Shown in pieces: positions 1-45,354 of a stretch of 46,243 bases of DNA. This stretch comes from Bacteroidota bacterium (GTDB taxonomy: Bacteria > Bacteroidota > Ignavibacteria > Kapaibacteriales > UBA2268), in the NCBI GenBank assembly GCA_021780815.1, contig JAJXYC010000014.1, forward strand, positions 1-46,243. The letters run 5' to 3'. Positions within the stretch are counted from its first letter, which is position 1; each line of letters opens with the position of its first letter. Made by a program: the position numbers and the translations under genes. The notes under the pieces were generated by a model. It made no database searches and was not told the origin of the DNA. It saw only the letters and a list, made by a program, of their open reading frames with translations.

Positions 1-3000
1 CCCATTGTTGAGCTACTTCTATTTCCTAACCGATCATAAGTAAAAGATTCCTCGTAATTATTATCCTCGTTCCAACTTACTAATCTATCTAAATAATCAT
101 AATAATAATTCGTTGTTTTTTCATTTTGCCCAAGTTGTGTTGATTTTTGGGATTTAATTTGACCAGTAGCATTTCTTGTTAATTGTTCTTTAAACACTTC
201 TACATTATTGTATTTTGCAACAATCATATCTATCCAACCTCTTTTATTATAAAAGAATTCTTGCGAATTTGGATTAATCATACCATCAGGTAAAAAGCTA
301 ATTTTTGAAATTGCATTTCTTTTATCATACTCATAAGACAAATCAGCCATTAAAGGCTTTGGATGAGGTAGTGGTGGGTGTAAAAGAGTTTCTCCTAATC
401 CAGAACCAAGAGAATCTAAAAAAGTATACACTTTTTCTACTCTTCCGTTATAATCATAATCATACCAAGTAACAAATTGTCTTAATCTATCTGCAACAAT
501 TATTTTATTTACTTTGTTCATAGAGTTATAAAAATAATAAACTGCATCATAACCTATTTTATCTGTATATCTCAAAACTGCTTCAATTCGACCTCTTGCA
601 TCATAACTAAAGAAAATATAATTAAAATTTTCGGACGAATTATCTCTGTAAGCAACAGCAGCTTTATGCCCTTTTAAATTATGCAAATCTCCATCGAAAT
701 TCATATCTTTAAAATTATATAATTCAGGACAATTGCTCCAGATATTTCCACTATACATATCTTGTCCTATTGGATAATATGAAAGGTCGTCGTATAAATT
801 TGAAACTAAAATATTTTCAGGATGTAAAATTATATTTTCAAAATCATTTGTAGATGATCTTGATTGTTCAGCATAATCTTCATAATTTACTATATTCGCA
901 AGTAAAAATGGAGCAACAGGTATGTAAACGCTATCATATTTATCTAAAGGTCTTGTTAATGAATCTACTCTTACAAAACTTTGCAGTTCTCTCATTTGAT
1001 GGTTTATAGAAAACAAGGTAGTATTTACATTAATTAGGTTACTATCAGGGGCTGCATTATGAACAATATTTGGATTCAACTTATCAGTTAATCTATTAAA
1101 AACAAGATTACCATTTCCATCGCTTTCTGGGTTAGCATTAACTATTGTTGAGTCAATTTTTGCAGTACCAACAATAGTTATTCTATTTAAATCATCATAT
1201 TGCATAAAAGAAATCTTGTTATTTAAAAATTGTTCATTATCTTGCGAAAAACGCAATCTTCCTATATTATCGTAAGCAAAAGAATTATATCCATTATTAT
1301 CATTATATTTGTAAATTACATTCCCAAAATTATCATAATAATATTTTGTTGATTGATTATTGGAATTAATCAATTCTTCTAACTGTCCTAAAGTGTTGTA
1401 ATGATACCTTGTTACAAACGTAGAACCATTAGTATCTATAACAGAAACTCTTAAATTACCAAAAATATCATAATATTGTTGCTTCCCTTTATTTTCTTCA
1501 TTATAAGTTGAAACTTTTTTAAGAACATACCCCTTAAAATATTCTCCATATAAAGTAGGATCACTCAATGCAAAAGTTTCCACTAATACTTTTTTTAAAG
1601 AATTCGGGTTCTCGTTTGTTGAGTAATCAGAATTAATACTAATTGAACTTCCTTCTGCATCTTGAGTAAGATATGATTGGTTTAAATCTTGGTCAGTAGT
1701 TCTAATATATGAATGTGTAGCAGGTGTTGAAGGAAAATCTGTCCCTTTCGTAAACAATGTTTTCTTTATGGATATTGAATCAATACGAATAGGAGACATT
1801 ACGTTACCAATAACAAAGTTTGTTAAATAGCTAACATTGTCTGCCATAAAATAGGAATCGCTCTCTGTATAACGTCCATCTTTACCCCAAGTTTGTATTA
1901 ATGGGATGTTATTTGAATGAAGCGGATCATCAATTTTTGCATAACTTTTCTTCTGTCTTAAAATATCATCATACTCGTACTTATAAGTAAAATCATCTAA
2001 AAAGTTATTTTCATAATTTGTACACATTGATATACCATTATCATCTGCATTTGTCTGGAAATCAATCAAACCTTCATCAGAATCCATACTCACAACAAAA
2101 GTGCAAGTTTCGTTGTTTGACATTTCTTTAAGTAGCAAGAGAATATCTTGTAAATCTACTTGAATACCTCCAAACTCTTGAATATTAGAAGAATCCTGTG
2201 AATCGTTAGTTATTTGATAAGTTTTTTCAAATCCAAATTTATCACAAGAAACTCGAATAATCATATTATCCGCATTGATTTTTGTAATAAAGTTTAAATT
2301 TAAGTAAGCAGAACTTGTTGATGAACTATGAATATTATCAAAACTTCCTGCAGTATAAGTAATCTTTGTTAAATAGTTTTCATTAATAATTAAATGTTTG
2401 TAATATGAAGAATCTTCGTCAACTACTGTATTTGAAATAATATGCCCAACTCTTCCTTCCCAATTAGCAATAGAATCAGATGATAAATTTGGGTTGTAAA
2501 TGGGTACTGTATAACAGTTCATAGAATCCAGTTTGTCAACGAACAGATAATATTTATCAATATTTTTAGTAGTTGAAACATTATAAAGTCTTGCGCAAGG
2601 TGCAGCAGATATTTCAAATATATTATCTGGAAAATCATAAGGCTGCCATTGATATAATTCTCTCCCATTGTAATCATAATTTTTACGATAAATCCACCCA
2701 TTGGGATCGATAAAAGCTGCAACCTGTCCAAAATATGTTCTTTCATTAATCGTTCTTAGTGTGTCAAGGAAAATTCCTTTGTAAGGAGTATATTTCCTTA
2801 TATAATCATCTGACACCAAAGGTGTTTCATACTCTTCAAATTGGTTAAATAATTGTTGATTTTTAATATTGTTTAAATCGGTATAAATTTTCCCAGTTGG
2901 ATATTGTCCTAATCCTTCAACCTCACTATAATCATAAAATACTTTCTTTTCTGCACCAAATATATCTTCAGTTGAATTTACTAAATTTCTATAATTCCCT

Positions 3001-5399
3001 GCTTTGTAACCATATCCTTCAACTCTAATCGTATCTGTGGCATTTTTGCCCACTTTATATGTTGAAATTAGCGCTCCTCGTCTTGGTGATAGCATGTTAC
3101 TTTCAAATGTTAATTGATAATTATTAATTGTACCTGATAAATAAATTTGATTGTTATCTATAATATAATTACTTCTTGATAATCCATAAATTGGGGGCAA
3201 AGTAATTGTATCTTGTAAACGAGTTACTGTATAATTATTCACAGTAACATTATTCCCTGAGCTTCTTGCTGCTAATGTAGCAAGCCTACTCTGATAATAA
3301 TTCCAAGTCGTATCATATCTATCAGTATAAGCATTTGATAAAGTTAAATTTGTAAATTCTTCTATATCTGTATAAAAAATATTAGCAAAATCTGAATTTG
3401 GTTCATACACTTCTGTTATAATTTTTTTCGGAACTACTATGTTATGGTCGCCAGGTAAACACAAAATATTATCAAACTCATATTGTAATTTAATATTGGA
3501 TACATCAACATAATCTTGGTCAGAAGAATTATCTACTTTCATTTTGGCACTGCTGGTTTCTTTTGTTAATAAAACAAAGTGGTTATTGTGGGGATAATTA
3601 TTTGGATCAATATCCCCTAATGTATTATATTGATATTCAGTTACATTCTCAGAATACGAATTATCAATTTTATAATTCCTTTGTATAATTTTTGAAATGT
3701 AAGGAAATCTTTCTATTTGGTATTGAAGAGGAATATTGGGAACAGTATAATATGGGCTAGTTTCATAAATTTTCATATACTGTTCAGTCTGTTGAGTAAA
3801 ATGTTCGCTGTTTGGATAATCATATTGAGTTTTTATTGACAACTTGCAAGTATCATTTCCATTCACATTTTTTGAAAATTGATAAATATCTTTGTGCAAA
3901 GAATCGGCAATATGCCCATTATATAAATTAAATAATGTAAGGGTCTGTACCATATTTGAATTATTGGGAGAAAATGACCATTTATCATAGTTTTGATAAC
4001 TAAATGAGATTGTATCTTTATAATAATTAAGTATATATGCTTTGGTTGGTTCTATTATAGTGTCCATTTTTACAAAATATCTATATCTGTTCAAATCTAT
4101 TATGTGTGCAGTATCTATTTTATAACGAAAACTTGTTATACGATTTTCTGGATCATAAATACTCGTTATATAAAATAACGAGCCGTCATAAGCCTCATTG
4201 CCATAGCTAGAACCAGACAATTTATAATCAAGAGAATCATTAATTTTTACAATATCTAATCCAATATCATGTATTGATTCAAAATGTGCTCTATCAGTTT
4301 GATAATCAATAAAGTTACTATTATCAAATCCTGCAATACCAATATATTTTTCTACATCTTCGAACTTCAAAGTTCTTCCTAATGCTTCTACGAGAAAGCC
4401 TCCACTTCCCCAAGTAAATTTATGACCTTGAAACTCTTTTATTGGAGCATGCCCTATTGAATAATCTTGAACAGTATTATCAAAATTGTGCCATTCACGT
4501 TTGAATTTCAGCAAATTCCTTTGTGAACTATTTATTTCCACTAAATAAAATATTCTTGGTAGAGCATTTTGGTGCGAGTCTTCCCACCAAACCCATGGTG
4601 GCAAAGTTTTGCCTTTGGTTGTTCGAAAATTATATGGTGATACTTCCTCACGAAAGACATACTCTAAACCATCACCAGAATAAAATTTTAATTTCCTTGG
4701 AACAAAAGCATATCTTGCAGGAAACGATACAGGAGCATTTTCTTTTTCATACTGTGGCCAATATGTTGAATCATATTCTACTACAGCAAAACCCGTTGTA
4801 TTTATTCCAGATTCATAATATATCCCTGTATACTTTTCAGCACATTCATAAGACATGTAGTTTTGATTGATTAGTTCCATTACTGAACCATCTGATTTTA
4901 ATAACTTGATTTTATCTATTTCTCCATTTGTTTGAACCTCTTTAAGTTGATTGCAGTAATCGTAACCATCAATAAGCCACATTTGTTGCTCAGGATCTAT
5001 GATTTCTTGTAAGAACACATTAGCTAACATTTGAATAGGATCTTTATACCGGGTATAATATCCTCTATGTCCAAGAACTTGTATAGCAAATTGATTGACT
5101 CCAATGAACCATACTGGATTAGTTTTGGTCTCAAAAGAAAATACCAAATGTTTTTGATCATCAGCAAAATATCCTTCATCAATTGCTGTAAAAAGAACAT
5201 TATCTGCATATGTTAAGTTTACTTTGATAGGAAATCCATCTATTGAGTTTGAAGATATTGGATAAGTATAACTAACTGCACCATTTAAATCATTAATATT
5301 CAGTTTCCCATCTACATCATTTGAAAATTGAGATTTAGCATAATTTGATGTTATTATAATTATCACTAAGATTAAATAATAAGGTAGTATATTTTTCAT
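1..5399 (-). CDS. RHS/YD-repeat secreted protein, 3' end beyond window
   Basis: Open frame of about 1,799 codons read from ATG to the left edge with no stop; I translated it throughout and re-checked the frame at about seven points. The N-terminus (MKNILPYYLILVIIII...) is a Sec signal peptide. Residues about 30-60 carry NGAVSYTYPISSNSIDGFP, the kind of opening seen in large Bacteroidota RHS proteins. YD-type repeats appear at about 1310-1380 (YYDIFGNL, HYNTLGQL, YYDNFGNV, AYDNIGRL) and 1605-1790 (YDYNGRV, YEYDKRNA, YYYDYLDRL, YDRLGNR). The middle is divergent, Tyr/Asn-rich, with no family recognised. RHS proteins form a hollow shell and often end in a core domain plus a variable toxin tip; that end is off the window, so toxin function is only inferred. 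A GAGGG ribosome site overlaps the stop of the upstream gene, suggesting translational coupling. It could instead be a non-toxic adhesin. Confidence 0.85.
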   Translation of the reverse strand, partial: MKNILPYYLILVIIIITSNYAKSQFSNDVDGKLNINDLNGAVSYTYPISSNSIDGFPIKVNLTYADNVLFTAIDEGYFADDQKHLVFSFETKTNPVWFIGVNQFAIQVLGHRGYYTRYKDPIQMLANVFLQEIIDPEQQMWLIDGYDYCNQLKEVQTNGEIDKIKLLKSDGSVMELINQNYMSYECAEKYTGIYYESGINTTGFAVVEYDSTYWPQYEKENAPVSFPARYAFVPRKLKFYSGDGLEYVFREEVSPYNFRTTKGKTLPPWVWWEDSHQNALPRIFYLVEINSSQRNLLKFKREWHNFDNTVQDYSIGHAPIKEFQGHKFTWGSGGFLVEALGRTLKFEDVEKYIGIAGFDNSNFIDYQTDRAHFESIHDIGLDIVKINDSLDYKLSGSSYGNEAYDGSLFYITSIYDPENRITSFRYKIDTAHIIDLNRYRYFVKMDTIIEPTKAYILNYYKDTISFSYQNYDKWSFSPNNSNMVQTLTLFNLYNGHIADSLHKDIYQFSKNVNGNDTCKLSIKTQYDYPNSEHFTQQTEQYMKIYETSPYYTVPNIPLQYQIERFPYISKIIQRNYKIDNSYSENVTEYQYNTLGDIDPNNYPHNNHFVLLTKETSSAKMKVDNSSDQDYVDVSNIKLQYEFDNILCLPGDHNIVVPKKIITEVYEPNSDFANIFYTDIEEFTNLTLSNAYTDRYDTTWNYYQSRLATLAARSSGNNVTVNNYTVTRLQDTITLPPIYGLSRSNYIIDNNQIYLSGTINNYQLTFESNMLSPRRGALISTYKVGKNATDTIRVEGYGYKAGNYRNLVNSTEDIFGAEKKVFYDYSEVEGLGQYPTGKIYTDLNNIKNQQLFNQFEEYETPLVSDDYIRKYTPYKGIFLDTLRTINERTYFGQVAAFIDPNGWIYRKNYDYNGRELYQWQPYDFPDNIFEISAAPCARLYNVSTTKNIDKYYLFVDKLDSMNCYTVPIYNPNLSSDSIANWEGRVGHIISNTVVDEDSSYYKHLIINENYLTKITYTAGSFDNIHSSSTSSAYLNLNFITKINADNMIIRVSCDKFGFEKTYQITNDSQDSSNIQEFGGIQVDLQDILLLLKEMSNNETCTFVVSMDSDEGLIDFQTNADDNGISMCTNYENNFLDDFTYKYEYDDILRQKKSYAKIDDPLHSNNIPLIQTWGKDGRYTESDSYFMADNVSYLTNFVIGNVMSPIRIDSISIKKTLFTKGTDFPSTPATHSYIRTTDQDLNQSYLTQDAEGSSISINSDYSTNENPNSLKKVLVETFALSDPTLYGEYFKGYVLKKVSTYNEENKGKQQYYDIFGNLRVSVIDTNGSTFVTRYHYNTLGQLEELINSNNQSTKYYYDNFGNVIYKYNDNNGYNSFAYDNIGRLRFSQDNEQFLNNKISFMQYDDLNRITIVGTAKIDSTIVNANPESDGNGNLVFNRLTDKLNPNIVHNAAPDSNLINVNTTLFSINHQMRELQSFVRVDSLTRPLDKYDSVYIPVAPFLLANIVNYEDYAEQSRSSTNDFENIILHPENILVSNLYDDLSYYPIGQDMYSGNIWSNCPELYNFKDMNFDGDLHNLKGHKAAVAYRDNSSENFNYIFFSYDARGRIEAVLRYTDKIGYDAVYYFYNSMNKVNKIIVADRLRQFVTWYDYDYNGRVEKVYTFLDSLGSGLGETLLHPPLPHPKPLMADLSYEYDKRNAISKISFLPDGMINPNSQEFFYNKRGWIDMIVAKYNNVEVFKEQLTRNATGQIKSQKSTQLGQNEKTTNYYYDYLDRLVSWNEDNNYEESFTYDRLGNRSSSTM

Positions 5400-5406
5400 T
5401 TTTCCC

Positions 5407-6261
5407 TCATTTTACTATAATAATTTTTTTACTTTCAACTATTTCTTGAAATATCTTAAATACTAAGGTGTATTCACCATTGCCAAAATCTTTTGTGCTA
5501 ATTATATTTTGTTCATAGGCTTCTATATATCCTGTATATACTATATTGGCGTATAAATCATATATTGCAACACTTACTCTTTCTGATGTATTATTTTGAA
5601 TATTAAGTATTTCATTAGAAGGATTAGGGAAAATATTTATTAACAAATTATTCGTTTTATCTGGTATGTTTTGTAACACCTCTTGTTTTTCTGGAATTAA
5701 ATCTGTGTTAATTTTTTTTAATTCTCGTAGTTCTTTGTTGTTTATTCTAATATATTTTAAATGTTCTGTTAAATATCTACCTTGTTCTTTTTGCGCTAAA
5801 AATGGAAAACGCTGAAAATTATTTATATCTTTCATAGAAACTTTGTTAATATTCTTTAAATTATCATCGCCATATATGATATATTTTTTATACAATAAAT
5901 TTACTTTTGTTGTATCTTCTTTCCTATAATACTTTATTTCAATAATTAAATCCAATTTTTGGTCATAATTTATTTTGGAAAAATAAAAACTACATTCTTG
6001 AATATTTATATTTGGAAGTTTTATTTCAGTTATTTTTCTAACTTCATTACTATCCTTTCCCCATTTGATTAATTTCGGGAAAATTATATTTTTGGAATAT
6101 TTAATATAATCTACTGTATCAATTTTGCCATCAAAATCAAAATCAACTTTTTTCTCAAATAGTTGATTCATTGCTTTGTCTGTTTCACTAAAACTGGTTA
6201 AAATATTAACAAAAATAAAAGTAATACTTAACTCTATGAAAAAGAATATCTTGATTTTCAT
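5407..6261 (-). CDS. Secreted protein with VCBS-like repeats and T9SS type A sorting domain
   Basis: 284 residues. The first about 25 residues (MKIKIFFFIELSITFIFVNIL) form a signal peptide. Residues about 35-50 read DFDFDGKIDTVDYI, close to the calcium-binding loop of VCBS/FG-GAP repeats, and a second looser copy (INYDQKLDLIIEI) follows at about 95-110. The last about 75 residues begin INIFPNPSNEILNI and end in a basic IIIVK, the pattern of the T9SS type A sorting domain, so the protein should cross the outer membrane and be anchored or released there. A GGGGAG ribosome site lies 5 bases before the ATG. It is directly upstream of the RHS-like gene with a 7-base gap and probably shares its transcript. 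No enzymatic motif is visible; a companion or surface partner of the RHS protein is a guess. Confidence 0.85.
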   Translation of the reverse strand: MKIKIFFFIELSITFIFVNILTSFSETDKAMNQLFEKKVDFDFDGKIDTVDYIKYSKNIIFPKLIKWGKDSNEVRKITEIKLPNINIQECSFYFSKINYDQKLDLIIEIKYYRKEDTTKVNLLYKKYIIYGDDNLKNINKVSMKDINNFQRFPFLAQKEQGRYLTEHLKYIRINNKELRELKKINTDLIPEKQEVLQNIPDKTNNLLINIFPNPSNEILNIQNNTSERVSVAIYDLYANIVYTGYIEAYEQNIISTKDFGNGEYTLVFKIFQEIVESKKIIIVK

Positions 6262-25301: not shown

Positions 25302-28300
25302 TTAGTTGTTAATAATAATTTTTTGAATATATTTATGGGTTGCGTTCTTTAAAATAACAAAATAAACTCCATCGCTTAATTTAGGAAATTCAATATTATG
25401 TTCATTACTTCCTTCTTGCATTTCAAAGGAGTGTAAATAACAAATTTGATTTAAATCATTAAAAAGTTCTAATTGATAAGTACCATTCATTTCTGAATTG
25501 AAATACAAAGAAACTCTCCCATTTGTTGGGTTTGGAGAAATATTGAACTTATCTATACCCAAAGCTTCAAATACAGAATTAGCAGGGTCTCCAACTCCAA
25601 TAACTTTAAATTGGATGTTTGCCGGATTACCATCTGTCAATAATTGAATAGTGGCAGATTTGGAACCTGTTGTTATTGGTGCAAATCCTACACGGAAATT
25701 AATCGTTGAACCCACATCTATCGATGTTGGCAATGTAGATTTAATTGAAAATTCACTTGCTTGTGTTCCTTCATCAGGAATAACTTGATAACTCAACACT
25801 GATGAAAGATAATTTCCTGTATTTTGTAGTTTGATAAACTTCGTTTTATTCTTATTTACAGGTTCATTACCACAATCTATAGGTTCAGCATCTAAAAGAG
25901 TAATTTGCTTATTAATTTCAGTTGGTTGATAAATAAAATCAAGATAAGAAAGCGAGTAACCTAATTGCCACAACCTTACTTTACCCGACAATATAGCGTG
26001 AGTTGCTAAAACATAATTTTCATATTTTTCAGATAGTTCTGAACTCCAAGTATTTCCATTATCATCTGAGTATTTTACTTCACCAGTATAAAATAAAATA
26101 TATTGCTTATTTGTTCCACTTGGCGAAAAAGCATAGATAGGTAATAAATTTTGAGCAGTGAAATTGATTGTTTGATTAATATTCCAGTTTTTTGCCCCAT
26201 CGCTTGTCATAGCAAGAAAACGACTTGATGTAGGTCTTAAATCAGTTGCAAATATTGCAAATCCGGTACTATCATTGCTAAATGATAAATCAAGAACAGG
26301 TTGCCCAACATTTATATTTGAGACAGACCAAGTTTGTCCTCGGTCTGTTGAACTAAATACTCTCCCCATTGTCGTTCCAAACCAAATATGGTCTCCTGAA
26401 AATTGACCAGAACCAACAAGTCCATCTTCATTTGTTAAAGCAAGAGGCACATTATTTGCCCGGTTCCAGCTTTTGCCACCGTCAGTTGTAGTAGCAATTC
26501 CCCAAACTGAATTAATTGGGTCACCAAGAACAATACCATTATTGCTATCATAAAAATGAATGAAATTAATAAATCCTGTTATCTGTGTTGAATTATAGGA
26601 AGTCCAACTTGCACCTCCATCTTTTGTATATAATATTTCAGATGTAGCCGTAGTTGAAGAACCAGTCCCTATAAATGCAGTATTTGCGTCAAAAGCATAT
26701 ATAGCATAATCAGGATTTGTTGTTTGATAATTCATTGTTACATTAGTCCCGGAAATTTTCCCATAAAGCCCTTTGTTATATACCAAGTCATTACCAACTA
26801 TCCAGCCATTTTGTTCATCTACCATTTGCATAGCATTCATTGAAATATAACTTGGATTATTTGCACTTTGGATTTTGATTGAAAATTGGTTTTGAGTTGT
26901 AATATTGATTGGTAAATTTACTAATTCATAATTAGTATAAGTTCCTGACGTAATAGTTGCAAGCAATCTTGTCTTTCCAGAGAACCAAGGACAATTTTTT
27001 GTAATTTGTAAATTCAATTGTAAATCTTTGATTTCATTTGAAGCCATAGAATTCAAAGAAAAAACAGAATCATTTAGAACAACCCAATTATCTAAAGGAG
27101 TTAATTTAACGCTCACATCAGAAGTAGTTGGAGAAAGATAATTTTTAAAAGAAATTTTGATTTGATTATTATTAAAATCACTAATATAACCTTGTGAATT
27201 AATCAATACTTGTTCCAAAGCAATACCAGGAATTTGTAAGTTTGGGTCTTGATTATTATATTGAAAAGCTTTTTGAGCATTGGCAATACCAAAATAATAA
27301 GGTCGCAATGAAGGCGAAGTTGCTACTTTATCATCAGCAGTTCCACGAATTTGCAACATCAATTGCTTTGGTGTCCAATTAGGATGAATAGATTTAAGAG
27401 AAGCAACTAACCCTGATATAATAGGTGAAGCCATAGAAGTACCACTTTCTTTTGCATATCCATTATTAGGAACTGTTGAAAGTATATTTTCGCCAGGTGC
27501 CCAAATATCCACAGTAATTCCATAATCAGAGAAAGAAGATGCTTTATAGTTAGCTCCTACTGAACCAACACAAAAAACAGCACCATAACCGGCGGGATAT
27601 TCTTGGTCATCATCAACAAGAGCTGAATTGTTTCCGGCGGCAACAACAACGACCGAACCTTTTGCTACTGCTGTATTAATAATATCTTCTTCTGCTGGCG
27701 AATAACCAGGACCACCCCAACTACAATTAATAACATCTGCGCCTAAATTTGCGGCATATAATATGCCATCATATCCAGCAAGAATCCCTGATATTTGATT
27801 GTTGTCCGCTCCTACTTTTACAGGTATTATGCTACAACCATAACCTATACTTGCTATACCTAAATTGTTATCTGTTACAGCATCAGCACAACCAGAAACA
27901 TGTGTACCATGCAAATTATTTGGGTCTGATGGCCTTGTATCATTGTCGGGTAAAAAAGTTGTAGAATTTGCATTTATATTACCAACAAAATCCCAACCGT
28001 GAACATCATCAACATATCCATTATGGTCATCGTCAATTCCATTATCAGGTATCTCATTTGGATTTGTCCATAAATTCCCATTCAAATCTTCATGACTCCA
28101 ATCAATACCAGAATCAACTATTGCAATTTTTATACTCTTACTCCCTTTAGAGATTTCCCAGGCTTTCCGCATATTCAGCATTTCCAAAGCATATTGTTCA
28201 CCTGAATTAAATCTCGGGTCATTTGGAGCATAGTCATAACTATATCTTATAAAAATTGGAGTAGCATATTCCACATCAGGATTATTCATTAACTCTTGAC

Positions 28301-28712
28301 ATACTAAATACGGGTCAATTGGAGTAGTATATTGGACTTTATATATCCTCGATATTCCATTATTATCGCTCTCATTGCTCCTAATATATTTTTCAAAAGG
28401 AGATTCTATTTGATTAACAGATAAATCTGCTAATTGGCTTTGTAATCTATAATTTTTAATTTGTTTTTTGTCTTGCGTAATTTCTGCCTTTGTTTTTAGT
28501 TTTACATAAACAGCATTTTGTACCAAATACTTAGGCTGAACTCGCTCAATAAATTTAGTCTGTGCAAGTGTAGACCATTTCCCATCAATCGTTTTGCCTA
28601 ATTTCTTTACATAAATTCCATCTTTATTGAAATTCATTTGCACATTAGGACGGGAATACATAGTAACAGTAGCAATTAAAATTATTACTACACTAATTAA
28701 AATTTTTCTCAT
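25302..28712 (-). CDS. Subtilisin-like (S8) protease with Asp-box repeats and T9SS sorting domain
   Basis: 1,136 residues. Signal peptide about 1-20; propeptide about 20-150; peptidase S8 domain about 155-470 with catalytic Asp200 (IVDSGIDWSH), His268 (NLHGTHVSG) and Ser426 (GTSMASP). Then about 640-950 a beta-propeller-like region with at least five Asp-box motifs (YTKDGGASWTS, TTDGGKSWNR, STDRGQTWSV, TSDGAKNWNI, YSDDNGNTWSS), an Ig-like/choice-of-anchor stretch, and a T9SS type A domain at about 1060-1136 (ISPNPTNGRVSLYF, ending IQKIIINN). Predicted to be a cell-surface or released broad endoprotease. AAGG lies upstream of ATG. The dipeptidase gene follows 15 bases on. Confidence 0.96.
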   Translation of the reverse strand: MRKILISVVIILIATVTMYSRPNVQMNFNKDGIYVKKLGKTIDGKWSTLAQTKFIERVQPKYLVQNAVYVKLKTKAEITQDKKQIKNYRLQSQLADLSVNQIESPFEKYIRSNESDNNGISRIYKVQYTTPIDPYLVCQELMNNPDVEYATPIFIRYSYDYAPNDPRFNSGEQYALEMLNMRKAWEISKGSKSIKIAIVDSGIDWSHEDLNGNLWTNPNEIPDNGIDDDHNGYVDDVHGWDFVGNINANSTTFLPDNDTRPSDPNNLHGTHVSGCADAVTDNNLGIASIGYGCSIIPVKVGADNNQISGILAGYDGILYAANLGADVINCSWGGPGYSPAEEDIINTAVAKGSVVVVAAGNNSALVDDDQEYPAGYGAVFCVGSVGANYKASSFSDYGITVDIWAPGENILSTVPNNGYAKESGTSMASPIISGLVASLKSIHPNWTPKQLMLQIRGTADDKVATSPSLRPYYFGIANAQKAFQYNNQDPNLQIPGIALEQVLINSQGYISDFNNNQIKISFKNYLSPTTSDVSVKLTPLDNWVVLNDSVFSLNSMASNEIKDLQLNLQITKNCPWFSGKTRLLATITSGTYTNYELVNLPINITTQNQFSIKIQSANNPSYISMNAMQMVDEQNGWIVGNDLVYNKGLYGKISGTNVTMNYQTTNPDYAIYAFDANTAFIGTGSSTTATSEILYTKDGGASWTSYNSTQITGFINFIHFYDSNNGIVLGDPINSVWGIATTTDGGKSWNRANNVPLALTNEDGLVGSGQFSGDHIWFGTTMGRVFSSTDRGQTWSVSNINVGQPVLDLSFSNDSTGFAIFATDLRPTSSRFLAMTSDGAKNWNINQTINFTAQNLLPIYAFSPSGTNKQYILFYTGEVKYSDDNGNTWSSELSEKYENYVLATHAILSGKVRLWQLGYSLSYLDFIYQPTEINKQITLLDAEPIDCGNEPVNKNKTKFIKLQNTGNYLSSVLSYQVIPDEGTQASEFSIKSTLPTSIDVGSTINFRVGFAPITTGSKSATIQLLTDGNPANIQFKVIGVGDPANSVFEALGIDKFNISPNPTNGRVSLYFNSEMNGTYQLELFNDLNQICYLHSFEMQEGSNEHNIEFPKLSDGVYFVILKNATHKYIQKIIINN

Positions 28713-32427: not shown

Positions 32428-34779
32428 TTACATCTTGATAAATTTCCTTGTGATGAACCAGCTATTATCAAATGTTAATTTTACTACATATACTCCTGCT
32501 TGTAATCCACTTACATCAAATTGTTCATTACTAAAATTATTTACCCGTCGCTCTCGCCCATATATGTCATATATTTGTAAATTCGTTAAATTATAGTAAT
32601 TATTTTGCAACTTTACTATTCCGCTTGCTGGATTTGGGTATAGTTCGATTGGTAATAACGTAACTTTCTCGATTTCTTCTTTTACACTCACTGGCTCAAC
32701 TTTCATCCTAAATAATCCTTCAATCGTACTAATATATAAGTAATTATCTACGGACAATATGTCTGTGATTATATTACCATCTAAATTTTGTGCTATATTT
32801 ATCCATTCATTCTTTTCCTCATCAAATTCAAATAAATTTGATTCTGAATTTTGAAATCCAAGCAATAGCAAAATTAATTTTCCATTTAAGTACAAAAATT
32901 TGTTATCTTCTGCTATATTCTTACCATTAATTTTTGGGAAGTTTGTTTGAATAAATGTTCGTCCAAAATCTTTCGTTATGTATATTGGTGATAAATATGT
33001 TTGTTGAATGATTGAATTACTATTAGTAGATAAATTCGCTAATATTAAAATTGTATCTTTATTTTCAACATAGGAATAAATAGATTGATAGTTTAGTGTA
33101 TCACTTGTCATCTTACTTATTTGTCTTTCAAAATTCCAGATTTTACCATCGTCAATGGATTTAAATAAAGCAAAGCTTTTGTAGTTAATACTGTAATAAT
33201 TCCCATCTCTTACAAATAAAATTTTGCTTTTTTCGGGTAATTTCTGTAAAAATAATGAATCATACATTACCCAAGTGTGTCCTGTATCTAATGAATAATA
33301 GTTGAATTTATCTGTCGCAAAGTAACTGCTGTTGTAAAAATAAAATAATGTGTCATTTCTTTCATACATATTTTTGTCTTCATCTAAGTAAAAAGCTGAA
33401 ACATCAGAATAAAGTTCCCAACTTTCTCCTTTATCATATGATTTATAGGTTTTATTAGTTCCTCTATCTACTGCAAATAACCCATATTTATTCTTGGAAA
33501 AAGTAAAATTATACTTTCCTCCTGTCCAATAATATTCTGTATATCCAATTGAATCTATTAAAAATTTTCTTTGCCATGTTCTTCCGCCATCATATGATTT
33601 CATATATACATTATAAAACGTATTTCTTGGTGCTGTTATATATTCATTATCATTTATCTTTACTATTTTCTTCCAAGGTCCTTCATACAGATAATCGGGT
33701 GAATTATACAAACCATTATTCCTTTCCTCCCATGTCACACCATCATCGGTTGATACCAATACTCCATAATATTTATTAGATGCTATTAATAAGTCGTCTG
33801 CAGAAAATAATTGCAAAATAGTAAAATACCGATTACCAACAATTTCCCATTTTGTCTCTCCGTCTTTTTTTCTTACTAATATTGCTTTATGGTTTAATCT
33901 ATCTATTGCTTGCGCATATATCATACCTTTATGTTGTATTAAAAAATCAGTATTAAAATTGTCAAATTGTTCATCAACGATTTTTTCGTAAGTTCCATCT
34001 TCCTTGGGTTGCCATATTGAAAAGGGAGAGAGTATCCATAATTTACCATTTATTTGAGAAAGAGATTTTATACCACCTTGGATACTAACTTCTACTTTTT
34101 TCCAAGACCAACCAAAATCTGTTGAATAAAAATATCGTGGATAATAAAACAACTTACTCCCATTATAATAAATTGCATATAACGTGTCACCAAATTGATA
34201 ATAATTCGTGACATTGTTAAATGATATTCCAAAGCCTTCATTATTGTCGACAATTTCTCCTTCTCCAGGTATTTTTTGAAATTTTAATGTTATTAATGAA
34301 TCATAGGTTATTTCTTTACAAATATATGTCCTATATTTGCTTATGGAATCACTTGTTTCTATAGCACGTATTATCAAAGATGAATCAGTAAAAAATATAG
34401 TAAGAATTGACGCACTTTTACCAAACCCTTCAACTTTAATAGATCCCCAATTTTTTAAATCTTCTGATATGTATGAATTGTTAACACTATTAAACATTAT
34501 GTATTTATTTTTGAATTTAATCATTTTAAAAGTACGTGCTAATTTTATTTGCTTAAATAAATTATCATAGTATTTAATTGTATGCCACTTTTCTCCATAA
34601 TTTGTGCTTAAATATGTGTAATTATATACAATAAATAAAATAGAATCTATTTTATTAATACCTTTAGCTGTATTATAATTGTTAAATCCTTCAGTGCAAT
34701 TTTCCCATTCAGAAACATCTTGAGAAAAAAGATTAACTGAAAAAAACATTACAAATAAAAGTATTAGATTTTTCTTTAT
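32428..34779 (-). CDS. Asp-box repeat surface protein with T9SS sorting domain, apparent ATA start
   Basis: About 783 residues. At least eight Asp-box motifs span the protein (STNYGEKWHT, STDFGWSWKK, STDDGVTWEE, SYDGGRTWQR, SYDKGESWEL, SLDTGHTWVM, SIDDGKIWNF, TKDFGRTFIQ), pointing to a sortilin/sialidase-like beta-propeller. The last about 80 residues (LYPNPASGIVKLQN, ending RKFIKM) are a T9SS type A domain. The first ATG (34749) leaves only FFSVNLFSQ as leader, too short and without a basic end. Ten codons upstream, ATA begins KKNLILLFVMFFSVNLFSQ, a complete signal peptide, with AAAGGAG 8 bases before it, the same spacing as in the related gene at 42871-45354. I therefore take ATA as start, or as a mutated ATG. 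No sialidase catalytic set was identified; function unknown. Confidence 0.82.
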   Translation of the reverse strand: MKKNLILLFVMFFSVNLFSQDVSEWENCTEGFNNYNTAKGINKIDSILFIVYNYTYLSTNYGEKWHTIKYYDNLFKQIKLARTFKMIKFKNKYIMFNSVNNSYISEDLKNWGSIKVEGFGKSASILTIFFTDSSLIIRAIETSDSISKYRTYICKEITYDSLITLKFQKIPGEGEIVDNNEGFGISFNNVTNYYQFGDTLYAIYYNGSKLFYYPRYFYSTDFGWSWKKVEVSIQGGIKSLSQINGKLWILSPFSIWQPKEDGTYEKIVDEQFDNFNTDFLIQHKGMIYAQAIDRLNHKAILVRKKDGETKWEIVGNRYFTILQLFSADDLLIASNKYYGVLVSTDDGVTWEERNNGLYNSPDYLYEGPWKKIVKINDNEYITAPRNTFYNVYMKSYDGGRTWQRKFLIDSIGYTEYYWTGGKYNFTFSKNKYGLFAVDRGTNKTYKSYDKGESWELYSDVSAFYLDEDKNMYERNDTLFYFYNSSYFATDKFNYYSLDTGHTWVMYDSLFLQKLPEKSKILFVRDGNYYSINYKSFALFKSIDDGKIWNFERQISKMTSDTLNYQSIYSYVENKDTILILANLSTNSNSIIQQTYLSPIYITKDFGRTFIQTNFPKINGKNIAEDNKFLYLNGKLILLLLGFQNSESNLFEFDEEKNEWINIAQNLDGNIITDILSVDNYLYISTIEGLFRMKVEPVSVKEEIEKVTLLPIELYPNPASGIVKLQNNYYNLTNLQIYDIYGRERRVNNFSNEQFDVSGLQAGVYVVKLTFDNSWFITRKFIKM

Positions 34780-42870: not shown

Positions 42871-45354
42871 TTAATTCTTTATTACTTTTATTGCATCTTT
42901 ATTCGTGTCGCAATTTAGTTTTATGAAATATACGCCTGGGGAATATTTACTACAATCCCAAATTATTTCTGCTTCGTATATTCCTGTTTGTTGTATTGTA
43001 AATTCATTCTTTGATTTATACACAACTCCTTCTGAATTATATATCTCAAAGCTTTCAGGGTTAAAGCAATCAAAATTGTTCGTATAAATTTTTACTCGCA
43101 ATTCATTCGTCGCCGGCTGCGGATATGCTAAATATTTATATAAATAACTTTCTTTCCTTTCAATTTCCGGAACTTTATTTATTGTTTCCCCTTTTTCAAG
43201 GATTAATAATCCATCAATATATTTATTTTCTGATAATTTATGGAAATAAATTGTCGGTAAACTTAATGAAGATGACCTTAAGTATTTCCTAAAATCGATA
43301 AGTTGAAAATTTGAAAAATCTGGAACCCAATTTTGACTTTCTATTCCTGTTGTTTCACAAAAGAAAGATTTTGAAATCGAGGAACCTTCATCGTACGTTT
43401 GAAAATAAATTCTTCCTTCATCTACCAAAAAAGGAAAAGAAAAAGATGTTTTGGTATAACCTGGTTTAATTGTAAACTTCCAATTACCAGGAGCCCCACT
43501 TAAAACACCTTCGTAGTCTAATGTATCCTTTTTGATTAATTTGAAAATGTTATTAGTAAAATCAATGTAAAAAGTTGATAAAATTTTAAACTCTTTTATA
43601 CCCCCATCAATAATATTACCGTCTGGATCTATTTTAATATTTTTTGAATCGCTCGTATCTATTATTGTAAATGCAAATGGTCTTGAAAATGAATTATCTG
43701 TTTGTGTATGAAAAAATATATTATTAAGCAATCCTTTATATCTATGTTTATCTGTAAAATCATTAAAAAGAAATAAGTCCTTCCAATTGTCTAAATCAAT
43801 ATTGTCACAGATCGAAATTGTAGCCTTACCATTTTTCACATTAAAAGTATATAATGTTTCATTTAGATTTGTAATTAAAAAAATGAAAGTGGAATCAATA
43901 AACTTTTTTGTAACAATTGGTTCGTCGCTATATATTGTACTATAATCAAATTTTATAAGATAAGTGAAATTTTGCATATCGTCAATTAAGTTATGAATAT
44001 TATACCCTTTAAACCTCACAGTAGAGTAACCACCATTGTTGAAGAAAACAGAAGAACCCTTTGGATAAAGACCATATAGCCATTTAGTTTTGAAATTATC
44101 GCCATAATTGTTAGTTATATAAAAATTAAACATTTTACTTGTATCGCTTCCATAAATTGGATTATTCCCGTTCCAACAATAATAATGCCCTAAATCATCA
44201 GCATCAAAAATAACAGATGGGAATGTTGCTATTGCTGTAAAAGATGTATCATTCATATTTTTTTGTGGTAAAAATGTAGCACCTCCATCTATCGTTCGAA
44301 ATATTTGGTTATCTGGGCTTGAAAAATATCCAATTTTTTCATTTACCCATTTTAATGTTTGGTTGATATTTAGATATGAAATAGGCTGCCAAGTATACCC
44401 TCCATCAAAAGACATAAAAATTGTGTTATATGTTCCAACTGCAATTAGTGTATTTTGATTTATAACTTTTACATCTTTTATTTTAAAATCCTTGCTTATC
44501 ACTCTTTCATAATGAATAATACTTCGATTTTGAAAGTTTCCATTAACTAGTTGATTAGTTTGTAGAGTTGCTATATTAAATTTAGACTCATCATTTCTTA
44601 TAATATTAAATATTTGACCATAATTTTCAAAAAATACCCCTCCAGTTACGTCATTAGTTATGCTAGTTAATTGATATTCCTGCTGATTCATTTTCATTAG
44701 TTTCCCATCAATATCAACATAAATTCCACTTTCAAATTTATAAATATTATTTACATTCTTACCTAATTGTAAATCATCAATTTTCAAAGTATAAATATTT
44801 AAAAGATTTTTAATATCAAAAGACAAAATTCTATTATTGCAAATTGCCAAAAATGAGCTATCTCGACCTTCAACAACTTTATAATAAGGCGATGATCCAT
44901 TTGATAAAAATTTTACTTCATAATAATTATACAGGTTGTCGTTAAAAATCCAAATAAAATAATTTGAAGCTGTTATAGAATATAAGGAATCATTATATTT
45001 TGATAAACTCGTGATTTGAGTATTTTCATACTTTTGCTTCGATTGAACAATTTTATAATTTTTATCTAATTTAAATAACATACCATCAGCCCTTGCACCA
45101 ATTAAATAATCACCATCCGGAATCAAATTCACAATTGAAACAGTATCTACAAAAATATGTTCTCGATACCAGTTTTTGCCCATATCATCACTAATTACAA
45201 AGTCGCCTGAATTTCCAAATACAATTATTTTATTATTAAAGTAACAAGAGCCATTAAAATCATAGTTTAAATGATAAAGCATAAACTCCTGATTTGCTTT
45301 TCCTATTGTAACAAATAGTACAAATACTATTAAAATTGTAGTAATTTTTTTCAT
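42871..45354 (-). CDS. Large secreted Asp-box protein with T9SS sorting domain
   Basis: 827 residues. Signal peptide MKKITTILIVFVLFVTIGKA with AAAGGAG 8 bases before ATG. Four Asp-box-like turns are visible (ISDDMGKNWYRE, SFDGGYTWQP, RTIDGGATFLP, TNNYGDNFKT), mostly in the N-terminal half, suggesting a beta-propeller. The T9SS type A domain is at about 745-827 (AYPQPATNELRVKIY, PGVYFIKLNCD, ending AIKVIKN). No catalytic motif recognised. It is a paralogue in design of the protein at 32428-34779, and its tail is copied as the remnant at 35050-35205. Probably surface-exposed; binding or degradation role unknown. Confidence 0.88.
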   Translation of the reverse strand: MKKITTILIVFVLFVTIGKANQEFMLYHLNYDFNGSCYFNNKIIVFGNSGDFVISDDMGKNWYREHIFVDTVSIVNLIPDGDYLIGARADGMLFKLDKNYKIVQSKQKYENTQITSLSKYNDSLYSITASNYFIWIFNDNLYNYYEVKFLSNGSSPYYKVVEGRDSSFLAICNNRILSFDIKNLLNIYTLKIDDLQLGKNVNNIYKFESGIYVDIDGKLMKMNQQEYQLTSITNDVTGGVFFENYGQIFNIIRNDESKFNIATLQTNQLVNGNFQNRSIIHYERVISKDFKIKDVKVINQNTLIAVGTYNTIFMSFDGGYTWQPISYLNINQTLKWVNEKIGYFSSPDNQIFRTIDGGATFLPQKNMNDTSFTAIATFPSVIFDADDLGHYYCWNGNNPIYGSDTSKMFNFYITNNYGDNFKTKWLYGLYPKGSSVFFNNGGYSTVRFKGYNIHNLIDDMQNFTYLIKFDYSTIYSDEPIVTKKFIDSTFIFLITNLNETLYTFNVKNGKATISICDNIDLDNWKDLFLFNDFTDKHRYKGLLNNIFFHTQTDNSFSRPFAFTIIDTSDSKNIKIDPDGNIIDGGIKEFKILSTFYIDFTNNIFKLIKKDTLDYEGVLSGAPGNWKFTIKPGYTKTSFSFPFLVDEGRIYFQTYDEGSSISKSFFCETTGIESQNWVPDFSNFQLIDFRKYLRSSSLSLPTIYFHKLSENKYIDGLLILEKGETINKVPEIERKESYLYKYLAYPQPATNELRVKIYTNNFDCFNPESFEIYNSEGVVYKSKNEFTIQQTGIYEAEIIWDCSKYSPGVYFIKLNCDTNKDAIKVIKN

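What the first reader, a model, noticed from the sequence alone, without database searches (positions are those of the whole stretch)
1..5399. Giant RHS/YD-repeat secreted protein with unseen C-terminal tip
At least 1,799 residues with a Sec signal peptide and scattered, divergent YD repeats that become regular only near the edge (YDRLGNR). RHS proteins of this build often end in a core domain and a variable toxin, followed by an immunity gene. Here both would lie left of the window, so this may be a polymorphic toxin locus.
Basis: partly seen in the sequence, partly recalled or inferred. Interest (0 to 1): 0.72.

Follow-up and report, generated by a model that had tools for sequence, protein, structure and literature searches.

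The report
Giant Rhs toxin with dedicated companion
A bacterium carries a giant shell-like weapon protein of the Rhs type whose missing end (conserved core, variable tip, likely immunity gene) was found on another contig, and the gene just before it makes a small surface-export protein that accompanies this toxin family almost without exception, hinting at how such toxins leave the cell.

Summary
In detail: window 3-5399 (-) is a 1,799-aa open frame with a Sec-like signal and RHS repeats, running off a contig end. The missing end is very probably at the right end of contig C9: the genome's only full Rhs core, an HExxH-bearing tip without a family match, and an overlapping 242-aa signal-bearing gene (candidate immunity). 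In all 17 relative ORFs where both matches reach the junction, the two pieces lie side by side. Relatives show the polymorphic design: cores match in 430 of 435 pairs, tips in 7 of 465; tips include Tox-MPTase3, M91 and NlpC/P60 domains.

New part: the gene directly upstream (5407-6261 -) is a T9SS-tagged protein. Its N-domain family, unnamed in Pfam, lies upstream of this Rhs clade in 33 of 35 loci; in 60 sampled genomes the 14 with the N-domain are the 14 with the Rhs N-terminus. The genome has SprA and lacks VipB. I propose that the companion carries the T9SS signal in trans for an Rhs toxin that has none. That the pair belongs together is well supported; the escort mechanism is inference. 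The nearest published parallel is the TANFOR toxins.

The parts
3..5399 (-). N-terminal 1,799 residues of a giant Rhs/YD-repeat protein; 3' end beyond the contig edge
5331..5399 (-). Sec-like signal peptide of the Rhs protein (residues 1-23, by eye)
   Evidence: translation; no predictor run
4359..5318 (-). Conserved N-terminal region of this Rhs clade (residues 28-347), the part that co-occurs with the companion
6..101 (-). RHS repeat at the contig edge
1314..1460 (-). Two overlapping RHS repeat matches, best stretch of the protein
2661..2729 (-). Weak RHS repeat match (E 0.299)
5407..6261 (-). Companion gene: 284-aa protein, N-terminal hydrophobic signal, unnamed N-domain, T9SS C-terminal sorting domain; ends 7 nt before the Rhs start
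5674..6168 (-). Companion N-domain (FG-GAP-like motifs; family specific to this Rhs clade)
5416..5634 (-). T9SS C-terminal sorting domain of the companion (Por_Secre_tail)

Best explanation
This is the front part of a polymorphic toxin operon: companion, Rhs toxin, immunity. The Rhs protein (1,799 residues here, about 2,300 with the C9 piece) folds into a YD-repeat shell that ends in a conserved core and holds a variable C-terminal toxin tip; in this genome the tip carries an HExxH motif, so it is probably a zinc-metallopeptidase-like toxin, and the 242-aa signal-bearing gene that overlaps its stop is its probable immunity protein, acting in the periplasm. The Rhs protein enters the periplasm by Sec but no T9SS tag was found on it. 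The companion encoded just upstream has such a tag, and I propose that its N-domain binds the Rhs protein and its T9SS domain brings the complex through, or anchors it at, the outer membrane (a secretion signal supplied in trans). Shown: repeats, core, tip diversity among relatives, T9SS-type domain on the companion, SprA in the genome, tight co-occurrence and synteny. Inferred: that C9 continues C3, that the tip is toxic, that the small gene is immunity, and that the companion escorts the toxin. My confidence is about 0.85 for the polymorphic toxin operon, 0.9 that companion and Rhs form a functional pair, and 0.4 for the escort step; the figure below is for the statement as a whole.
For: Rhs nature. 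Missing end on C9: only full core in the genome, open at the contig end; no other body matched; in 17 of 17 relative ORFs in which both matches reach the junction, the implied number of missing residues is -27 to +7, median -11. Polymorphism: cores similar in 430 of 435 pairs, tips in 7 of 465. Of 10 tips given to Pfam (of 32), three exceed the curated cut-off: Tox-MPTase3 1.7e-25, NLPC_P60 1.6e-5, Peptidase_M91 2.4e-5; three match below it (Prok-JAB, Toxin-JAB1, Lnb_N); four, the window's included, have none. Orphan core-tip ORFs behind the main gene in 7 loci: L066, L068, L069, L096, L104, L105, L112. A small ORF starts within -50 to +34 nt of the stop in 25 of 32 cases. Companion: one family member upstream of Rhs in 33 of 35 loci; with the last 90 residues removed, a profile seeded by the window protein alone still converges on those 33 among the upstream ORFs, best shuffled decoy E 0.63 or worse in each round. 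In 60 genomes the N-domain is in 14 and the Rhs N-terminus in the same 14. In 149 genomes of the class (8 of the 15 companion genomes shared with the first sample), 15 have the companion at E<1e-20, all among the 16 with the Rhs N-terminus at E<1e-40; the sixteenth (G117) has diverged companions at the 3 of its 5 loci where upstream sequence exists (thresholds set after seeing the lists). Companion and Rhs distances correlate, Spearman 0.63, 0 of 2,000 permutations. T9SS domain: 28 of 33 Por_Secre_tail at E<=0.01; predicted structure closest to the NucA signal domain bound to the translocon, Z 10.9, then mirolase 10.5. SprA 744 bits; VipB of T6SS absent.
Against: C9 and C3 share no exact end overlap of 5 to 199 bases, so the join is inferred from relatives. 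The window tip matches no Pfam family and HExxH is read by eye. The candidate immunity gene has no curated match over cut-off. No null was run for the count of small downstream ORFs. T9SS-tagged genes are common in this genome (114 places at E<=0.01), though that alone would not give one homologous family 33 times. NCBIfam scores the companion tag at 22.3 bits, just under its cut-off of 23. In the fold search, Ig-like domains of unrelated proteins follow close behind the T9SS domains (DUF3244 Z 9.8, a bacterial alpha-2-macroglobulin 9.5), and Foldseek had no match at E<=0.001. At position -6 from the end, 15 of 33 companions have proline and 4 (the window among them) lysine, and the L096 member has a dockerin-like end and no tag (by eye; one member matches Dockerin_1), so recognition by PorV may differ. 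No interaction or secretion was tested. A folded Rhs shell may be too large for the SprA pore (recalled, not computed).
Confidence: 0.6

Rival explanations
1. The pair is functional, but the companion is a surface partner in its own right (for example a receptor binder or anchor displayed by T9SS) and the Rhs protein crosses the outer membrane by another route or is released in vesicles.
For: The companion N-domain has FG-GAP-like motifs (one member of 33 matches Pfam FG-GAP_3, E 0.0053) and weakly resembles integrin-type propeller blades (Z 7.7, 140 residues aligned, rmsd 5.9), a fold used for binding; T9SS cargo is often surface-anchored (recalled).
Against: No other two-step exporter for the Rhs protein is known to me in this genome, but only T6SS was tested for (absent). 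The Z value lies at the background level of that method.
Confidence: 0.3
2. The C9 piece is not the continuation of the window gene; a second Rhs body is missing from the assembly and the true tip is unknown.
For: No end overlap between the contigs; the assembly is in 20 contigs.
Against: One body without an end and one full core without a body were found in the assembly; RHS_repeat matches elsewhere lie only in a T9SS-tagged subtilase-like frame on C17. Both pieces break at the homologous point, in register, with compatible strands.
Confidence: 0.1
3. Companion and Rhs merely travel together in one genomic island without acting together.
For: Both are absent from 4 of 4 same-genus genomes, so the module is accessory; distances correlate as they would in simple co-transfer.
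Against: Near one-to-one co-occurrence across several families and at least two orders with the gene order conserved, and N-domain and tag kept at 12-24% identity to the window protein, exceed what hitchhiking predicts.
Confidence: 0.1
4. The Rhs protein is an adhesion or teneurin-like surface protein and not a toxin.
For: The profile also matches teneurins; the window tip has no family match.
Against: Near-total divergence of tips behind a conserved core, recognised toxin and peptidase domains in relatives, orphan modules and adjacent small genes.
Confidence: 0.07

Closest known systems
Rhs/YD-repeat polymorphic toxins (T6SS Rhs effectors such as Tre23, Tse5, Tse15; WapA-type)
   Same: YD repeats, Rhs-associated core, variable C-terminal tip, adjacent small gene, orphan core-tip modules; sequence relatives of the solved Rhs shells
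   Different: Sec-like signal in place of a PAAR or other T6SS N-terminus; no VipB in the genome; a T9SS-tagged companion is encoded just upstream
TANFOR polymorphic toxins of Bacteroidetes (Jana, Salomon, Bosis 2020, PMC7073777; outline, passages and sections 6 and 9 read)
   Same: Sec signal, variable toxin tips, immunity genes, T9SS-tagged genes enriched nearby, one toxin immediately downstream of such a gene; the authors speculate about T9SS export
   Different: No NCBIfam family matches the window protein at E<=0.1 (whether the library holds a TANFOR model was not checked); there the enriched neighbour domains (SprB, Fn3, PKD, T9SS tag) were counted within 10 genes, here one small dedicated family lies upstream with near one-to-one co-occurrence
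T9SS type A cargo signal domains (NucA, FspA, RemA, RemZ, mirolase; PorU and PorZ domains)
   Same: Companion C-terminal domain: Pfam 31.7 bits over a cut-off of 27; structure Z 8.1-10.9 to these
   Different: The tag sits on a separate small protein beside the probable cargo; NCBIfam score just under cut-off; end of the domain variable in the family
FG-GAP / integrin alpha propeller repeats
   Same: Asp-rich loops in the companion N-domain and weak structural likeness
   Different: Only about 130 well-ordered residues, too few for a closed propeller (recalled fold size); one marginal Pfam hit in 33 members

Membership tests
Rhs polymorphic toxin | RHS/YD repeats | tested here: met
Rhs polymorphic toxin | Rhs-associated core domain | tested here: met
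   59.8 bits over a cut-off of 32.5, on the C9 piece; its link to the window is inferred
Rhs polymorphic toxin | Conserved core followed by a variable tip | tested here: met
   430 of 435 core pairs and 7 of 465 tip pairs similar
Rhs polymorphic toxin | Adjacent immunity gene | tested here: inconclusive
   A 242-aa ORF overlaps the stop by 8 nt; no curated immunity match
Rhs polymorphic toxin | Toxic activity of the tip | not testable with these tools
   needs expression
T6SS Rhs effector | T6SS sheath in the genome | tested here: not met
   VipB PF05943 0 matches; the control rang in E. coli
T6SS Rhs effector | PAAR or similar N-terminal domain | tested here: not met
   Pfam scan of the 1,799 aa at E<=0.1 lists RHS_repeat alone
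TANFOR polymorphic toxin | N-terminal TANFOR domain | tested here: inconclusive
   no NCBIfam family at E<=0.1, but I did not verify that the library holds a TANFOR model
TANFOR polymorphic toxin | T9SS-tagged gene in the neighbourhood | tested here: met
T9SS type A cargo (companion) | C-terminal sorting domain by sequence | tested here: met
   Pfam 31.7 bits, cut-off 27; NCBIfam TIGR04183 22.3, cut-off 23, narrowly missed
T9SS type A cargo (companion) | C-terminal sorting domain by fold | tested here: met
   8glk_D Z 10.9 over 74 residues, rmsd 2.2; 8qb1 10.5 over 75, rmsd 1.8; unrelated Ig-like domains reach 9.8
T9SS type A cargo (companion) | T9SS translocon in the genome | tested here: met
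   SprA 744 bits; other components not tested
T9SS type A cargo (companion) | Secretion that depends on T9SS | not testable with these tools
   needs an experiment
Peptidase_M91 (tip) | M91 profile match | tested here: not met
   no Pfam family for the window tip at E<=0.1; an HExxH motif is seen by eye

The most novel reading that the evidence does not exclude
A secretion signal supplied in trans: Kapabacterial Rhs toxin shells that lack a T9SS signal are exported or surface-anchored by the T9SS through a dedicated companion whose T9SS domain acts for both. This would be a new mode of T9SS cargo recruitment, a route for Rhs toxins other than T6SS, T7SS or one-membrane Sec release, and a T9SS role in warfare between bacteria.
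Probability: 0.35. Interest if true: 0.82.

Novelty: new variant of a known kind. Interest (0 to 1): 0.6.

Why it matters
How Sec-exported Rhs toxins of Gram-negative bacteria without T6SS cross the outer membrane is, to my knowledge, open, and a role of T9SS in killing neighbours has been proposed (PMC7073777) but I saw no demonstration in the papers searched here. A small protein family that accompanies one Rhs clade almost without exception and bears the T9SS signal makes that question testable with one gene pair. If the signal works in trans, lists of T9SS cargo that are built on proteins with their own tag are incomplete.

Tried and rejected
The end overlap between C3 and C9 was looked for and not found. 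A DNA search of the window's first 150 bases in the own genome gave the window itself and 39 short matches at E 0.028 or worse, none on C9. The RHS_repeat matches on C17 lie in a T9SS-tagged frame that reads as a subtilase (by eye); single matches are under the cut-off of 22 bits, the frame sum is 24.6, over it; I discount it as a second Rhs body because the window protein does not match it. The first genome-contig scan with the single protein found nothing; an alignment found 34 loci. The weak companion hits G177 and G179 (E 8.5e-4, 2.4e-4, no Rhs) were left out of the count of 15. Three genomes counted as Rhs-positive (G010, G035, G059) match only repeats or C-terminal residues and were set aside for the co-occurrence count. 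One Rhs place, G015:C199, has no N-domain hit; its companion (L123) was recruited. Nine genomes of a diverged Rhs clade have no companion hit; among the loci fetched for them, several lack enough upstream sequence, and one T9SS-tagged ORF in G175 (L167) gave an N-domain E of 0.0025 in that small set. PDB sequence searches with the Rhs N-terminus and the companion N-domain gave nothing significant, and Foldseek gave no match at E<=0.001 for either model; the integrin-like rows are at background level. MAG1140 (0.0075) and YoaP (0.083) hits were judged chance. The Cys-rich neighbour family has no Pfam match in the seven scanned. Literature searches for this pairing showed no report of it in their listings; bioRxiv and most subscription journals were not covered. 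PMC10994853, PMC10202324 and PMC12618676 were read only as passages.

Full report
What was given. The finding concerns window 1-5399. The window is the whole contig C3 of a 2.63-Mb, 20-contig, 99%-complete genome. Its named relatives by this gene are mostly MAGs labelled Candidatus Kapaibacterium, Ignavibacteria, Chlorobiota or Bacteroidetes.

The observation. ORF 3..5399 (-) gives 1,799 aa, open at the contig end. Pfam finds RHS repeats, at three places along the frame. A profile of residues 1080-1799 with 24 relatives matches solved Rhs shells down to E 2.1e-30, and teneurins. The first residues look like a Sec signal (by eye).

The missing end. A search of the own genome for the Rhs-associated core gives one full match, at C9:136220-136447 (-), and one remnant with a stop on C14. 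The C9 match lies in a 503-aa frame open at the right end of C9. The window protein finds no other body in the genome. There is no exact overlap of the two contig ends. In 17 of 17 relative ORFs in which both matches reach the junction, the end of the window protein and the start of the C9 piece map side by side; the implied number of missing residues is -27 to +7, median -11. So I take C9 as the continuation, with little or nothing lost; this is an inference. The tip is 171 aa with HExxH (by eye) and no Pfam match. The next ORF, 242 aa with a hydrophobic N-terminus, overlaps the stop by 8 nt.

Relatives show the polymorphic design. In 42 loci given (34 named, 7 unnamed, C9), 32 ORFs bear the core end. 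The 30 core stretches long enough match each other in 430 of 435 pairs at E<=1e-3. The 31 tips (one with unknown bases left out) match in 7 of 465 pairs: five of these are within one locus (L069, L096, three in L105) and cover the first part of the tip only, and two join L098 with the two L096 tips, one of them over nearly the whole tip at 34%. Of 10 tips given to Pfam (the window's among them), three exceed the curated cut-off (Tox-MPTase3 1.7e-25 in L101, NLPC_P60 1.6e-5 in an L112 orphan, M91 2.4e-5 in L104), three match below it (Prok-JAB 1.4e-4 in L096, Toxin-JAB1 0.0077 in L098, Lnb_N 0.081 in an L104 orphan), and four, the window's included, have none. Orphan core-tip ORFs follow the main gene in seven loci: L066, L068, L069, L096, L104, L105, L112. 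In L105 the main tip and one orphan share 120 residues at 97.5% and then part, as expected of tip exchange. A same-strand ORF of 70 aa or more starts within -50 to +34 nt of the stop in 25 of 32 cases; two of the other seven are at contig ends (no null model was run for this count).

The companion. The gene upstream (5407-6261 -) ends 7 nt before the Rhs start and has a T9SS C-terminal domain (NCBIfam just under its cut-off). In the window and 34 named loci, 33 of 35 have exactly one homologue upstream on the same strand: in 8 a Cys-rich ORF of about 200 aa lies between it and Rhs, in the other 25 no such ORF does. The two without a homologue are L103 (144 nt of upstream sequence held) and L116 (an IstB-like transposase upstream, by eye). 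With the last 90 residues removed (L120, a 167-aa piece, was kept whole), a profile started from the window protein alone converges on exactly these 33 among the upstream ORFs; the best shuffled decoy has E 0.63 or worse in each round. 28 of 33 match Por_Secre_tail at E<=0.01; the member in L096 has a dockerin-like end (by eye).

Co-occurrence. In 60 genomes (the own one included), 14 have the N-domain and the same 14 have the Rhs N-terminus; 46 have neither. Of the 21 places, 20 lie upstream of Rhs on the same contig and strand; the other, G057:C178, is a fragment at a contig end. In G045 about 5 kb with minus-strand ORFs that look like a restriction-modification insertion (by eye) lie between. 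In 149 genomes of the class, 15 have the companion at E<1e-20, all among the 16 with the Rhs N-terminus at E<1e-40; 8 of the 15 are also in the first sample, and the thresholds were set after seeing the lists. The sixteenth, G117, has diverged companions (E 2e-23 to 2e-22 with the full profile, which includes the tag, and 6e-6 to 6e-5 with the N-domain, in a small set) at three loci; its two other loci start at contig ends. Nine genomes with a diverged Rhs N-terminus have no companion. The genomes are related, so these are not independent events. Companion and Rhs distances correlate (Spearman 0.63; 0 of 2,000 permutations reach it), consistent with joint inheritance. T9SS-tagged genes are frequent in the own genome (114 places at E<=0.01), so a tagged neighbour alone would mean little; the shared N-domain is what counts.

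Structure. The companion model (pLDDT 84.9, pTM 0.56) has an ordered N-domain, a disordered linker and a C-terminal domain closest to T9SS signal domains: NucA in the translocon Z 10.9, mirolase 10.5, FspA 9.9, PorZ 9.9, PorU 9.8; Ig-like domains of unrelated proteins follow at 9.8 and below, and Foldseek had no match at E<=0.001. The N-domain alone (pLDDT 83.6) gives no Foldseek match at E<=0.001 and, in the second look, integrin propeller blades at Z 7.7, which is background level; its Asp-rich loops fit FG-GAP repeats.

Mechanism. The genome has SprA and no VipB. I propose that the companion binds the Rhs protein in the periplasm and lends it its T9SS signal. Evidence against or open: no interaction test, 15 of 33 companions with proline at position -6 where the window has lysine, one member without the tag, and possible size limits of the pore (recalled). 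The rivals are listed with their odds.

Known and new. Rhs polymorphic toxins are well known; TANFOR toxins are the published parallel for a link to T9SS neighbours (PMC7073777). The listings of searches showed no report of an Rhs clade with a dedicated T9SS-tagged companion. I therefore call it a new variant of a known kind.

Noticed in passing
L014 1501-1662 (G000:C14:40436-40597): Remnant of a second Rhs core with a stop inside and no Rhs body seen nearby: a decayed orphan module in the same genome.
   Followed up: partly
L107, L115, L118, L121, L122, L124, L125, L126 (between companion and Rhs); L100, L119 (before companion); L164 2908-3543: A second small secreted-looking Cys-rich family of about 200 aa in the same operons, no Pfam match in the seven scanned; absent from the window locus.
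   Followed up: partly
L094 13468-18228: The Rhs gene of this locus is interrupted by about 4.8 kb that includes a transposase-like ORF (by eye).
   Followed up: no
L164 3975-7019: Minus-strand ORFs that look like a restriction-modification insertion between companion/Cys-rich genes and Rhs (by eye).
   Followed up: no
L105 9701-17113, 17660-18514, 19519-20424: Main tip and one of two orphan modules share 120 residues at 97.5% and then differ: a picture of tip exchange.
   Followed up: partly
L101 9824-17347 and 17022-18041: The core and Tox-MPTase3 tip lie in a second frame overlapping the end of the main Rhs frame: a shifted gene or a sequence error.
   Followed up: no
L099, L115, L116: Members in MAGs labelled Desulfobulbaceae, Lokiarchaeota and Bradyrhizobiaceae; more likely mis-binned contigs than transfers (not tested).
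   Followed up: no
L114 2-7423: A second, different Rhs-core protein of 2,474 aa lies upstream of the companion-Rhs pair.
   Followed up: no
window 25302-28712, 32428-34749, 42871-45354: Three further T9SS-tagged proteins in the window: a subtilase and two BNR-repeat proteins; the genome has 114 tag places at E<=0.01.
   Followed up: no
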